Of a stretch of DNA of 64,000 nucleotides, positions 11,926-51,081 are shown piece after piece. The position numbers were made by a program, and so were the translations under genes. This DNA is from Crossiella cryophila (lineage in GTDB: Bacteria > Actinomycetota > Actinomycetes > Mycobacteriales > Pseudonocardiaceae). The stretch is from the NCBI RefSeq assembly GCF_014204915.1, contig NZ_JACHMH010000001.1, positions 3,555,001 through 3,619,000 of the forward strand. The letters are read 5' to 3'. The first letter of the stretch is position 1; each line of letters opens with the position of its first letter. The notes beneath the pieces are model-generated. The model had not been told where the DNA came from. It did no database searches and worked only from the letters and a program-made list of their open reading frames with translations.

Positions 11926-13290
11926 ATGTCGTCATACCGCGACGCCTGCGTGGCACAAGTCACTGTCGAGGCCGAGTGGCTGTCCCGCACCCTGTCCACC
12001 CTGGTCCGCAAGCACCAGGTTCCTGGCGCCCAGCTCGCCGTGCACGTCAACGGCGAGACCATCACCGCCGAGGCCGGCGAGCTGCGCTACGGCGGCGGCA
12101 CACCGGTAACCCGGGACACCGCCTTCCCTATTGGCTCGGTCACCAAGGCCGCCACCGCCGCACTGGCGATACTGCTGGTCGCCGACGACGATCTTGAGCT
12201 GGACTCGGACGTCACCGAGCACCTCCCTGAACTCGGCGCGCCACTGACGCTGCGCCAGTTGCTCAGCCACACCAGCGGGCTGGCCTCCGGGCCGGACTCG
12301 GCCGTGGCCGCCACGATGTCCCTGCGCCGCTTCGTCGCCGAGCACTGCCGCACCCCCGAACTGGTGCTGCCGGCCGGCGCGGGCTTCTCCTACTCCAACC
12401 TCGGTTACGCCGTCGTCGGGCGGCTGATCGAGGAGGTCACCGGCATGACCTGGTGGGAGGCGATCGAGTCGATCCTGCTGCGCCCACTGGGGATCCGGCC
12501 CGCCTTCGTGGTCGCGCCCAACCCGCTGACCTCGGTGAACGTCGCCAGCGGGCATGCGGTCAACACCTCGCACGGACGCACCCGGCCGGTCGTGCAGTCC
12601 CTCGCCATGGGTGAGGCCCCGGCCGGAGCGCTCGCGCTCAGCGCCGCGGATCTGCTGCGCTTCGGCCTGCTGCACATGGATCCGGCGGAGACCGGACTGC
12701 CCGACCTGCTGCCGGCCGAGCTGGCCGCGGAGATGCGCCGCATCCAGCCGGGCGCCGACCCGATCGGCCTTGCCGATGGTTGGGGACTCGGCTTCGGGGT
12801 ATTCCGTACTGGGGTCCAGCACTGGATCGGCCACGACGGCAACGCCGACGGCACCGACGCGCATCTGCGGGTCAACGCCGACAGCAGCCAGGCCATCGCC
12901 TTCACCAGCAACGGCAACACCGGCATCGGCCTGTGGGCGGAACTCGTCGACGAGCTGGCCGAGGTCGGCATCGAGGTCGGCAGTTACCGGCTGGACGTGC
13001 CGGGCCGACGCACCACGGTGCCGCCCGAGATCTTCGGCAGCTACCTCAACGGCGACACCGAGTACACGGTCAGCCCGGCCGAGGACGCCACGCTGCGCCT
13101 GGCCATCGACGGCGAGATCGTCGCCCGGCTCACCCCGCACGAAGGACTCATGTTCGCCCAGCAGGACTGGGAATCGGGACAACTCGTGCACCCCGGCCGC
13201 TTTCTTCGGGACCCGGTAACCGGTGTGCTGGACCGAATTCAGGTTTCCGGCCGACTGGCCCGCCGCGCGGTCGGCAGCGGCCGCTGTTAG
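11926..13290 (+). CDS. Stand-alone PBP-type thioesterase / peptide cyclase (SurE-like), serine hydrolase family
   Basis: This 454-aa cytosolic protein (no signal peptide) has a class C beta-lactamase/penicillin-binding fold. The nucleophile motif is SVTK (Ser71, Lys74), the second motif is YSN (Tyr156, Asn158), and an HDG (303-305) fills the KTG position. The last ~120 residues are beta-rich and could be the lipocalin-like domain seen in SurE. SurE, DsaJ, WolJ, UlmX and MppK are trans-acting cyclases that take peptides with a C-terminal D residue from NRPSs that lack a thioesterase. Here the downstream NRPS ends in an epimerase with no thioesterase, module 1 gives an L residue, and this gene opens the operon 95 bases before NRPS 1, so all conditions are met. 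A D-Ala-D-Ala peptidase or esterase is the alternative, but those are normally exported. Confidence 0.78.
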   Translation: MSSYRDACVAQVTVEAEWLSRTLSTLVRKHQVPGAQLAVHVNGETITAEAGELRYGGGTPVTRDTAFPIGSVTKAATAALAILLVADDDLELDSDVTEHLPELGAPLTLRQLLSHTSGLASGPDSAVAATMSLRRFVAEHCRTPELVLPAGAGFSYSNLGYAVVGRLIEEVTGMTWWEAIESILLRPLGIRPAFVVAPNPLTSVNVASGHAVNTSHGRTRPVVQSLAMGEAPAGALALSAADLLRFGLLHMDPAETGLPDLLPAELAAEMRRIQPGADPIGLADGWGLGFGVFRTGVQHWIGHDGNADGTDAHLRVNADSSQAIAFTSNGNTGIGLWAELVDELAEVGIEVGSYRLDVPGRRTTVPPEIFGSYLNGDTEYTVSPAEDATLRLAIDGEIVARLTPHEGLMFAQQDWESGQLVHPGRFLRDPVTGVLDRIQVSGRLARRAVGSGRC

Positions 13291-13385
13291 CAGCGGGAAC
13301 AGTCCCGCTTCAGCGCACTTCCGGCTAGCTCCTGCATACCCCGTCTGCTGGCGTGGTCTTGCCACGCCTGAAAGGTTTTGAGTTC

Positions 13386-49500: not shown

Positions 49501-51081
49501 GCACCGGAAACCCCGGCGGAGAAGGCCCTCGCCGAGATCTGGGCCGAGGTGCTCGGCCTGGCCAGGGTCGGCACCGCGGACAACTTCTTCGAGCTGGGCG
49601 GCGACTCCATCCTGACCATCCAGGTGGTCTCCAGGGCGCACAAGGCCGGCTACGCCTTCACCACCAAGGACCTCTTCGCCAACCAGACCATCGGCGGCCT
49701 GGCCAAGGTGGTCACCGAGATCGAGGCCGGGCAGGCCGGGCAGGAGGCCGCGGTCGGCGCGGTGCCGCTCACCCCGATCCAGGACTGGTTCTTCGGCGCC
49801 TACCAGGCCAACCCGCACCACTTCAACCAGTCCGCGCTGCTCGAACTCGACCACAACGCCGACCCGGCCGCGCTGGAGGCCGCGGTGCAGGCACTGCTGG
49901 AACACCACGACGCGTTGCGCATGCTCTTCGAGCAGGTCGACGGCCAGTGGCACCAGTACAACCCGCCGTTCACCCCCGCCGGGATCATCCGCGGCCACGA
50001 TCTGTCCACTGTGGACCCTGCAGAGCAGCGGGCCGCGATGGAACGGGTCGCCGACCAGGTGCACGCGAGCTTCAACCTGGGGGAGGGCCCGCAGCTCAAG
50101 GCGGTGCTCTTCGACTGCGGCCCGGCCCGCCCGCACCTGTTCCTGGCCGTGCACCACGCGGTGGTGGACGGGGTGTCCTGGCGGGTGCTGCTGGACGACC
50201 TGGACACCGCCTACCAGCAGGCCGCCCGCGGCGCCAAGGTCGACCTCGGCCCGCGCTCGACCTCCTTCCGGGACTGGGCGATCCGGCTGTCCGAACACGT
50301 GGCCGGCGGTGGTCTCGACCACGAGCTGACCCACTGGACCCGCGCGCTCGACGGCGCGGAACTGCCGGTGGACCACCGGGACCGGCCGGTCGAGGAACCC
50401 GCCACGGTGACCGTGGAACTGAGCAGGCAGGCCACCGAGGCGCTGCTCTTCGCCGCGCCCACGGTGTACCGCACCCGGATCAACGACGTCCTGCTCACCG
50501 CGCTGGCCTGGGCGATCAGCCGATGGACCGGGCAGGAACGGGTGTCGGTGGACCTGGAGGGCCACGGCAGGGAGGAGATCCTGGACGGGATCGACCTCTC
50601 CCGCACGGTCGGCTGGTTCACCACCATGTTCCCGGTCGGCCTCGAGGTCCCGGCCACCGGCGAGACCAACTGGCGCACCCTGATCAAATCGGTGCGGCGG
50701 CAACTGCGGGCCCTGCCCAACAACGGGTTCGGCTTCGGCGCGCTCCGCCACCTCGGCACCCCCGAGGTACGCGAACAGCTCGCCGCGGGCCGGCGCGCGC
50801 AGATCGTGTTCAACTACCTCGGCCAGTGGGACAGCGCGGTCCGCGGCGAGGCCGAAGCCGGTCTCTACCACGCCGCACACGGCTCCATCGGCCAGGAGGA
50901 GGACCACGCCAACCAGGGCGAGCACCTCCTCGAAGTGGTCGGCGCGGCAGGTGGCGGACAGCTGAGATTCGCCTGGCACTACCGGCCGGACACCCACGAT
51001 CAGTCCACAGTGGAGCGCGTGGCGGCGGACTTCCGCACCGCGCTGGAGCAGATCGCCCTGGACTGCGGAGGAAAGCAGTGA
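31531..51081 (+). CDS. Giant NRPS 2: C-A-T-E / C-A-T / C-A-T-E / C-A-T / C-A-T-E (modules 6-10), no thioesterase
   Basis: This is a 6516-aa NRPS starting 16 bases after NRPS 1, with AAGGGGG before ATG 31531. The N-terminal helix ([17 protein letters not shown]) should dock onto NRPS 1. Carrier serines are at 1019, 2509, 3532, 5004 and 6026. Adenylation cores start near 636, 2124, 3154, 4620 and 5644. Condensation HHxxxDG motifs are at 169, 1670, 2690, 4165 and 5184, and epimerase HHxxxDGVSW motifs at 1200, 3698 and 6208. C domains 6, 8 and 10 carry [13 protein letters not shown] (L-to-L), while 7 and 9 carry [13 protein letters not shown] (D-to-L), matching the epimerases. The protein ends with the module-10 epimerase (final residues ALDCGGKQ); I see no thioesterase GxSxG, reductase or terminal C domain. 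Codon 338 is TTA. Confidence 0.95.
31657..36102 (+). other. NRPS module 6 (C-A-T-E, D residue)
   Basis: The L-to-L C domain accepts the NRPS 1 pentapeptide. The code is DAYFWGVTYK, one residue from module 3, so residues 3 and 6 are probably the same or closely related hydrophobic amino acids. The epimerase is complete. Together with module 7 it forms a two-module unit repeated as modules 8-9. Confidence 0.55.
36121..39189 (+). other. NRPS module 7 (C-A-T, L residue, basic)
   Basis: The code is DTEDMGYVDK. Three acidic pocket residues (Glu239, Asp278, Asp331 in GrsA numbering) predict a positively charged side chain such as Arg, Lys, Orn or a related guanidino amino acid. The adenylation motif [10 protein letters not shown] marks the same subfamily as module 9. 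There is no epimerase. Confidence 0.6.
39217..43587 (+). other. NRPS module 8 (C-A-T-E, D residue, Val-like code)
   Basis: The code is DAYWWGGTFK, identical to module 4. The adenylation domain is four residues shorter than its paralogues just before pocket position 278 (around 41215; compare [11 protein letters not shown] in module 4 with RGYDITG here). All core motifs remain, so it should still work. The epimerase has [10 protein letters not shown]. Confidence 0.55.
43612..46665 (+). other. NRPS module 9 (C-A-T, L residue, basic)
   Basis: The code is DTEDMGFVDK, differing from module 7 only by Phe for Tyr, so a basic residue is predicted, perhaps the same one. The C-domain active site reads [10 protein letters not shown], where the residue before HH is Ser and not Phe. 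There is no epimerase. Confidence 0.6.
46690..51078 (+). other. NRPS module 10 (C-A-T-E, terminal, D residue)
   Basis: The code is DALLIGAVVK, one residue from modules 1 and 5 and eight of ten identical to the remembered Tyr code DALVTGAVVK. The final epimerase ([10 protein letters not shown]) makes the C-terminal residue D, which is the feature PBP-type cyclases need. Confidence 0.6.

What the first reader, a model, noticed from the sequence alone, without database searches (positions are those of the whole stretch)
11926..51081. Ten-module NRPS without thioesterase, led by a stand-alone PBP-type cyclase: predicted new cyclic decapeptide
Seen: ten carrier domains, last domain an epimerase, no cis thioesterase, and a cytosolic serine hydrolase with SVTK/YSN/HDG motifs as first gene of the operon. 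Known: SurE, DsaJ, WolJ, UlmX and MppK are trans-acting PBP-type cyclases for peptides with a D C-terminus and usually an L N-terminus; the examples I recall give rings of about 6-8 residues. Here residue 1 is L and residue 10 is D, so the stereochemical rule fits. A head-to-tail decapeptide would be at the large end for this cyclase class.
Basis: partly seen in the sequence, partly recalled or inferred. Interest (0 to 1): 0.85.

Follow-up and report, generated by a model that had tools for sequence, protein, structure and literature searches.

The report
Ten-step peptide assembly line, stand-alone cyclase
A Crossiella bacterium carries a five-gene operon that very probably builds a ring-shaped ten-amino-acid peptide and closes the ring with a separate, penicillin-binding-protein-like enzyme; it looks like an unstudied example of a biosynthetic type that is already well described.

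Summary
Window 11926-52533 is a compact operon: PBP-type hydrolase, two NRPSs of 5+5 modules, MFS exporter, MbtH. There is no cis thioesterase, and 12 residues follow the terminal E domain. C-domain subtypes agree with the E placement: L1-D2-D3-D4-L5-D6-L7-D8-L9-D10. The hydrolase is a SurE-family PBP-type thioesterase: SurE (4e-80) and Ulm16 (1e-63) are its closest solved relatives, far ahead of DD-peptidases. Catalytic residues and the C-terminal eight-strand domain are kept; trees leave the base of the family unresolved. All five genomes searched of the genus (Crossiella) carry the 10-module cluster. The 28 other homologues (E <= 1e-60) in 397 genomes of the order lie within 8 kb of NRPS genes; complete relatives have 6, 8 or 9 modules. 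Most likely product: a head-to-tail cyclic decapeptide. Ordinary in kind: SurE itself makes cyclosurugamide F, a cyclic decapeptide, and a survey reports SurE-linked NRPSs of 4-10 modules in 166 organisms (PMC11735501, PMC7459860). The compound may be new; the mechanism is not. A linear product is the main rival.

The parts
11926..13290 (+). stand-alone PBP-type thioesterase/cyclase (SurE family), 454 aa; S71, K74, Y156, N158, H303
13036..13266 (+). C-terminal eight-strand lipocalin-like domain of the cyclase (residues 371-447)
   Evidence: eight strands in the AF2 model, pLDDT blocks 66-88; HMM of this part matches SurE E 2e-18 and Ulm16 6e-12
13353..31514 (+). NRPS 1, five modules; start GTG 13353 or, more likely from the upstream sequence, ATG 13386
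13488..15176 (+). module 1 A-T, no starter C domain, code DALLIGSVV(K), residue L
15210..19496 (+). module 2 C-A-T-E, code DVFSVAIVY(K), residue D
19581..23909 (+). module 3 C-A-T-E, code DAYFWGVTF(K) (Ile/Val-like), residue D
24000..28319 (+). module 4 C-A-T-E, code DAYWWGGTF(K) (Val-like), residue D
28410..31430 (+). module 5 C-A-T, code DALLIGSVV(K), residue L
31489..51081 (+). NRPS 2, five modules; overlaps NRPS 1 by 26 nt
31621..36000 (+). module 6 C-A-T-E, code DAYFWGVTY(K), residue D
36097..39150 (+). module 7 C-A-T, code DTEDMGYVD(K) (acidic pocket, probably a basic residue), residue L
39184..43491 (+). module 8 C-A-T-E, code DAYWWGGTF(K) (Val-like), residue D
43582..46632 (+). module 9 C-A-T, code DTEDMGFVD(K), residue L
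46663..51042 (+). module 10 C-A-T-E, code DALLIGAVV(K), residue D; terminal E domain 49669-51042, no thioesterase after it
51078..52337 (+). MFS exporter, start overlaps the NRPS 2 stop (GTGA)
52330..52533 (+). MbtH-like protein, 67 aa, last gene of the operon

Best explanation
A five-gene operon makes and exports a head-to-tail cyclic decapeptide. NRPS 1 starts on a free amino acid (no starter C domain, so no fatty acid cap) and builds five residues; NRPS 2 adds five. The last E domain leaves a D residue as thioester on the tenth carrier. The stand-alone PBP-type thioesterase takes the chain onto Ser71; the free amine of L residue 1 attacks the D-acyl enzyme and closes a ten-residue ring. The MFS protein exports it and MbtH assists the A domains. 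Shown by sequence: gene order, domains, stereochemical programme, cyclase family and catalytic residues, conservation in five Crossiella genomes. Inferred: acyl transfer, cyclisation rather than hydrolysis, ring size, residue identities (roughly hydrophobic/aromatic1 - small D2 - D-Ile/Val3 - D-Val4 - hydrophobic/aromatic5 - D-Ile/Val6 - basic7 - D-Val8 - basic9 - hydrophobic/aromatic D10), export.
For: SurE and Ulm16 are the top solved relatives, 4e-80 and 1e-63, next best 5e-20; the SurE alignment covers residues 20-447. Foldseek of the model ranks SurE and Ulm16 first, E 1e-31 to 3e-31 for the best chains, then IS11 7e-20 and R61 1e-14. Ser, Lys, Tyr, His and the pocket Gly are kept in 37 of 37 PBP-TE rows, Asn in 35 of 37, Arg443 in 36 of 37 with one gap. 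C domains fall in two groups, 50-62% within and 25-30% between, exactly as the E domains require. Of 28 other homologues at E <= 1e-60 in the order, 28 have NRPS genes within 8 kb. In 30 of 30 clusters with both ends seen, out of 37 contexts, the first module lacks E and the last has E with 11-20 residues after it. The 10-module cluster is in 5 of 5 genomes searched of the genus; MFS and MbtH follow in 5 of 5. SurE is reported to prefer neutral, aliphatic and aromatic D residues at the C-terminus and to disfavour L-Arg, L-Glu and L-Pro at the N-terminus (PMC11735501 section 7); hydrophobic residues 1 and 10 would fit.
Against: No compound is known to me from this cluster. For the one native decapeptide substrate described (surugamide F) one group found cyclisation by SurE and another mostly the linear peptide, and the cyclic form is a trace in culture (PMC7459860 passages). 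The AF2 model is weak (mean pLDDT 67.3; Foldseek rmsd to SurE 7.2-7.9 A) and poor around active-site loops. Trees do not resolve the base of the family: without seven long rows SurE falls beside the R61 group at 34/78 and the outgroup splits; AU test of Crossiella with DD-peptidase-like rows p = 0.0503. Residue identities rest on recalled codes.
Confidence: 0.82

Rival explanations
1. The same enzyme mainly hydrolyses the chain, so the natural product is a linear decapeptide, as with surugamide F.
For: For SurE acting on surugamide F-SNAC one study saw mainly linear surugamide F, and cyclosurugamide F is a trace product in culture (PMC7459860 passages).
Against: Here the PBP-TE sits with a single NRPS pair kept across five genomes. 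The SurE G235L variant cyclised an undecapeptide at 74% conversion, and SurE cyclised long AEEA-spaced substrates with no hydrolysis observed (PMC11735501 section 7).
Confidence: 0.12
2. The hydrolase is an ordinary beta-lactamase/DD-peptidase-like enzyme (self-resistance or housekeeping) that happens to lie first in the operon; release is by another enzyme.
For: PF00144 is common in this genome (39 matches); AU test p = 0.0503; SurE itself is placed weakly beside the R61 group in one tree.
Against: Best relatives are SurE/Ulm16 by a wide margin. The C-terminal domain was found in 2 of 16 distinct PF00144 places tested, the two being the window gene and a second PBP-TE of G402. No signal peptide by hydropathy. 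NRPS genes near all 28 homologues. No PF00975 thioesterase in the window.
Confidence: 0.03
3. Colinearity fails: module skipping, iteration or loading of one module by another A domain gives a ring of another size.
For: A-domain-free modules occur in related clusters, so this family departs from simple colinearity elsewhere.
Against: All ten modules here have A and T domains, and C/E domains with their motifs.
Confidence: 0.03

Closest known systems
SurE of the surugamide pathway (Streptomyces)
   Same: stand-alone PBP-type TE with C-terminal lipocalin-like domain, catalytic Ser/Lys/Tyr/Asn/His, TE-less NRPS ending in E, L first residue, D last residue; a native decapeptide substrate
   Different: SurE serves two assembly lines (8-mer and 10-mer); here one 10-module line. 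38-40% identity in the Foldseek alignments. SurE Gly235-Gly236 is Gly234-Ala235 here.
Ulm16 of the ulleungmycin pathway
   Same: same enzyme family and fold (8fek second, third chain)
   Different: natural hexapeptide; Ulm16 has an insert before the SHT motif that is absent here
SurE-linked NRPS clusters of 4-10 modules from a survey of 1421 actinobacterial genomes (PMC7459860 section 15)
   Same: TE-less NRPS next to a SurE homologue, up to 10 modules
   Different: Crossiella, Amycolatopsis and Pseudonocardia are not named in that paper's main text (0 occurrences); the survey's own tables were not seen
Tyrocidine / gramicidin S systems
   Same: head-to-tail cyclic decapeptides with hydrophobic and cationic residues; predicted composition here is similar in kind
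   Different: conventional thioesterases; TycC TE joins a D N-terminus to an L C-terminus (PMC11735501 section 7). Here a trans PBP-type TE with the opposite closure

Membership tests
PBP-type thioesterase (SurE family) | N-terminal serine-hydrolase domain with catalytic Ser, Lys, Asn, His (and Tyr) | tested here: met
   SurE S63, K66, Y154, N156, H305 align with S71, K74, Y156, N158, H303
PBP-type thioesterase (SurE family) | C-terminal lipocalin-like domain of eight antiparallel strands | tested here: met
   eight strands at 371-447 in the model, antiparallel order not checked; HMM of this part hits SurE and Ulm16 and 2 of 16 distinct PF00144 places, both PBP-TEs
PBP-type thioesterase (SurE family) | closest to characterised family members rather than to DD-peptidases, by score and fold | tested here: met
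PBP-type thioesterase (SurE family) | forms a clade with SurE and Ulm16 apart from DD-peptidases | tested here: inconclusive
   39-row clade 91/98, not starred; not recovered without seven long rows, base 34/78; AU p 0.0503 and 0.462. The window's own 34-row clade of NRPS-linked rows is starred in both trees
PBP-type thioesterase (SurE family) | stand-alone, cytosolic, beside an NRPS without cis TE | tested here: met
   cytosolic by hydropathy only
PBP-type thioesterase (SurE family) | substrate with L first and D last residue | tested here: met
   first module A-T without E, last module C-A-T-E; C subtypes agree; stereochemistry itself not measured
PBP-type thioesterase (SurE family) | catalyses head-to-tail macrolactam formation from a peptidyl thioester | not testable with these tools
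   needs enzyme assay
Exported DD-peptidase / class C beta-lactamase | signal peptide and closest similarity to R61/AmpC | tested here: not met
   no hydrophobic N-terminus; R61 2.8e-18 against SurE 4e-80
Lipopeptide NRPS | starter C domain on module 1 | tested here: not met
   module 1 begins with A

The most novel reading that the evidence does not exclude
A PBP-type cyclase dedicated to one decapeptide line: a genus-wide Crossiella product, cationic and amphipathic like tyrocidine but closed by the opposite stereochemical logic (L first, D last). It would stand beside Pseudonocardiales sub-branches of the cyclase that serve 8- and 9-module lines, whereas the products of the in vitro characterised enzymes named in the reviews read are, as far as I know, mostly 5-8 residues, SurE's decapeptide excepted.
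Probability: 0.35. Interest if true: 0.45.

Novelty: new member of a known kind. Interest (0 to 1): 0.3.

Why it matters
PBP-type thioesterases are sought as peptide-cyclising biocatalysts. An enzyme whose sole native substrate appears to be a decapeptide, with four close orthologues and 8- and 9-module cousins in the same order, is a good candidate for cyclising larger peptides and for finding what sets the size preference. I saw no description of the predicted cationic cyclic decapeptide in the paper listings searched here; it could be an antibiotic. Conceptually it adds a case, not a mechanism.

Tried and rejected
Rejected: exported DD-peptidase or resistance beta-lactamase; release by a PF00975 thioesterase in the window (the nearest two lie upstream among PKS, P450 and glycosyltransferase genes); lipopeptide start; the idea that ring size 10 is unprecedented. 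The TAP-like alpha/beta hydrolase at 53184 was not tested as a releasing enzyme; its N-terminus looks exported, and a relative was seen only in L027 and L033 besides the window, but the other Crossiella stretches end about where it would begin.

Led nowhere or weak: similarity of A1 and A7 to solved A domains does not tell the substrate; both score highest with linear gramicidin synthase. The exact phrase 'PBP-type thioesterase' gave 0 papers. Holding the six outgroup rows together in an AU test was not rejected (p 0.462). The 45-row tree leaves the base of the family open and puts SurE weakly beside the R61 group. A short inverted repeat between cyclase stop and NRPS 1 was aligned; the G402 row did not align, perhaps because of locus orientation, and I did not pursue it. 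The first C-terminal-domain control used outgroup rows mostly trimmed to their match, so it was repeated on 19 untrimmed loci; three of these are repeats of the same place under another handle (L127/L135, L129/L138, L011/L137), leaving 16. Of the 38 other PF00144 matches of the own genome, 10 were and one more (61724).

Recalled, from no call: GrsA numbering, the meaning of A-domain codes, SurE catalytic Ser as residue 63. Codes were read from columns fixed by motifs in module 4.

Rows dropped: L001, L002 and L004 were left out as duplicates of longer contexts (G403, G404, G168). 7 of 37 contexts lack an end and are not in the counts of complete clusters. Homologues were collected at E <= 1e-60; weaker PF00144 proteins were not checked for NRPS neighbours.
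Full report
What is there. The window is 70.5% G+C and lies at 3555001-3619000 of a one-contig 10.06 Mb genome. The nearest named records are Crossiella sp. S99.2 and SN42, whose cyclase proteins are 96% and 91% identical. Two genomes of the window's own genus, G403 and G404, carry matches at the same contig positions and on contigs of the same length as these two records, so the host is a Crossiella. The feature is an operon of five genes on the + strand: PBP-type hydrolase 11926-13290, NRPS 1 ending 31514, NRPS 2 31489-51081, MFS exporter 51078-52337, MbtH 52330-52533. 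The last four overlap by 26, 4 and 8 bases; the cyclase stop is 62 bases before the first, or 95 before the likelier, start of NRPS 1.

Modules. Motif scan, Pfam and HMMs built from the window's own domains agree on ten A, ten T, nine C and six E domains. All nine C and six E domains have HHxxxDG and all six E domains EGHGR. Nine T domains were found by motif and HMM, the module 2 one (HGGDSI) by HMM and by eye. The C domains split cleanly: C2, C6, C8 and C10 are 50-60% identical to each other, C3, C4, C5, C7 and C9 50-62%, and the two groups 25-30% to each other. This is what LCL and DCL subtypes should give if residues 2, 3, 4, 6, 8 and 10 are D. The first module has no C domain, so the chain starts with a free amine. 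Only 12 residues follow the final E domain. None of 34 PF00975 matches in the genome lies in the window; the nearest two are upstream, next to ketosynthase/acyltransferase, P450 and glycosyltransferase genes; where that cluster ends was not determined.

The hydrolase. phmmer against the PDB puts SurE (6ksu, 4e-80) and Ulm16 (8fek, 1e-63) first; the next, IS11, is at 5e-20 and R61 DD-peptidase at 3e-18. The alignment to SurE runs over residues 20-447, C-terminal domain included. SurE Ser63, Lys66, Tyr154, Asn156, Gly235 and His305 correspond to Ser71, Lys74, Tyr156, Asn158, Gly234 and His303 (numbering set by taking the SurE serine as 63, which is recalled; a Gly then falls at 235, as PMC11735501 says of the pocket). 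Across the 37 PBP-TE rows collected here these are kept in 37, 37, 37, 35, 37 and 37. An AlphaFold2 model from seven sequences is of modest quality (mean pLDDT 67.3), but its C-terminal part shows eight strands at residues 371-447 with block means 66-88, as reported for the lipocalin-like domain (PMC11735501 section 7). Foldseek gives SurE and Ulm16 at 1e-31 to 5e-30, then IS11 at 7e-20 and R61 at 1e-14. An HMM of the C-terminal part, run on 19 PF00144 loci (16 distinct places) of Crossiella and Amycolatopsis genomes, found the domain in two: the window gene itself and a second PBP-TE in genome G402.

Trees. In a 52-row tree the window protein falls with SurE, Ulm16 and the other NRPS-linked homologues (39 rows, 91/98, not starred), apart from R61, IS11 and eleven other PF00144 proteins of the same genome; the exported PBP at 61724 groups with R61. 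Several outgroup branches are long. Without seven long rows (45 rows), the window protein is again in the 34-row NRPS-linked clade (96/98, starred) with Ulm16 next (89/91), but the base falls apart: SurE stands beside the R61 group at 34/78 and IS11 with two own-genome proteins attaches elsewhere. An AU test of the Crossiella rows together with three DD-peptidase-like rows gave p = 0.0503; holding the six outgroup rows together was not rejected, p = 0.462. So trees do not settle the deep grouping; scores, fold and the C-terminal domain carry the claim.

Comparative genomics. Of 397 genomes of the order, 24 have a match at E <= 1e-60, 29 loci in all including the window's. All 28 others have NRPS genes in the stretches read; in three (L041, L044, L045) the NRPS frame begins 1.8-7.3 kb away, in the rest it is next to the cyclase. 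With longer stretches, 37 contexts were read and 30 show both ends of the assembly line (25 relatives and five Crossiella). In 30 of 30 the first module is A-T without E and the last ends in E with 11-20 residues after it. Module totals are 6 in eight, 8 in eight, 9 in nine and 10 in the five Crossiella. The Crossiella cluster is present in 5 of 5 genomes searched of the genus, the other four cyclases 86-96% identical. A-domain codes are the same in all five at modules 2, 4, 7, 8 and 9, differ by one or two letters at 1, 5, 6 and 10, and at module 3 are DAYFWGVTF (window, S99.2), DAYFWGATF (SN42) or DAYWWGGTF (G405, G402), an Ile/Val-type change. The MFS-MbtH pair follows in 5 of 5.

Product. 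Codes read from the alignment are DALLIGSVV, DVFSVAIVY, DAYFWGVTF, DAYWWGGTF, DALLIGSVV, DAYFWGVTY, DTEDMGYVD, DAYWWGGTF, DTEDMGFVD, DALLIGAVV. From recalled code tables, modules 4 and 8 suggest Val, 3 and 6 Ile/Val, 1, 5 and 10 a large hydrophobic or aromatic residue, 7 and 9 (Glu239, Asp278, Asp331) a basic residue, 2 a small residue. Only the Val/Ile calls are reasonably firm. The overall picture is a cationic amphipathic ring.

What is known. PMC11735501 (passages, and section 7 part 1) describes five PBP-type TEs characterised in vitro, their L-first, D-last rule, SurE's cyclisation of surugamide F to cyclosurugamide F, and cyclisation of an undecapeptide by the G235L variant. PMC7459860 (passages and section 15) reports 166 organisms, from a database of 1421 actinobacterial genomes, with SurE-type NRPS systems of 4-10 modules, and that a second group saw mainly the linear decapeptide. 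PMC9415966 (passages) lists NRPS clusters in two cave Crossiella strains; the word cyclic does not occur in it. Among the 7 papers listed and the 20 listed of 113 I saw no described product of this cluster; these are listings, and only open-licence PMC papers are held.

Verdict. Observation confirmed, mechanism supported at about 0.8, a linear product the main rival. It is a new member of a known kind at the upper end of the known size range. Interest 0.3.

Noticed in passing
L024, L025, L042, L027, L029, L033, L035, L039 (NRPS 1, module 2): Module 2 of all eight complete 8-module relatives is C-T-E without an A domain. Four keep 92-108 residues between C and T that look like a remnant of the A-domain C-terminal part (RVRGFRV...), four only 17-22: an A domain apparently decaying stepwise, with its carrier presumably loaded by another A domain.
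   Followed up: partly
L021, L023, L030-L032, L034, L036-L038: Nine complete 9-module PBP-TE clusters, seven of them in one clade with two named Amycolatopsis and with a 5-module NRPS 1 of the same architecture as in the window; they predict cyclic nonapeptides.
   Followed up: partly
L134 with L160 (genome G402): A second PBP-TE in one Crossiella genome, directly after a frame ending in T-E, with an MFS gene right behind it and an MbtH about 13 kb on.
   Followed up: no
window 61724-62968 +: A second PF00144 protein, with a signal-peptide-like N-terminus and grouping with R61 DD-peptidase; not part of the operon.
   Followed up: yes
window 13291-13352: Short inverted repeat (GCGGGA-ACAG-TCCCGC) between cyclase stop and NRPS 1, kept in two of the other four Crossiella (S99.2, G405), imperfect in SN42, not assessed in G402; possible attenuator or processing site.
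   Followed up: partly
window 53184-54647 +: TAP-like alpha/beta hydrolase with a signal-peptide-like N-terminus just after the operon; not tested for any link to it.
   Followed up: partly
window 60148-60795 +: PptT-like phosphopantetheinyl transferase gene near the operon; below the curated cut-off of the PptT model.
   Followed up: no
window 9322-11469 -: NB-ARC/TPR protein matching the FxSxx-COOH-system TPR family above cut-off, divergent neighbour of the operon.
   Followed up: no
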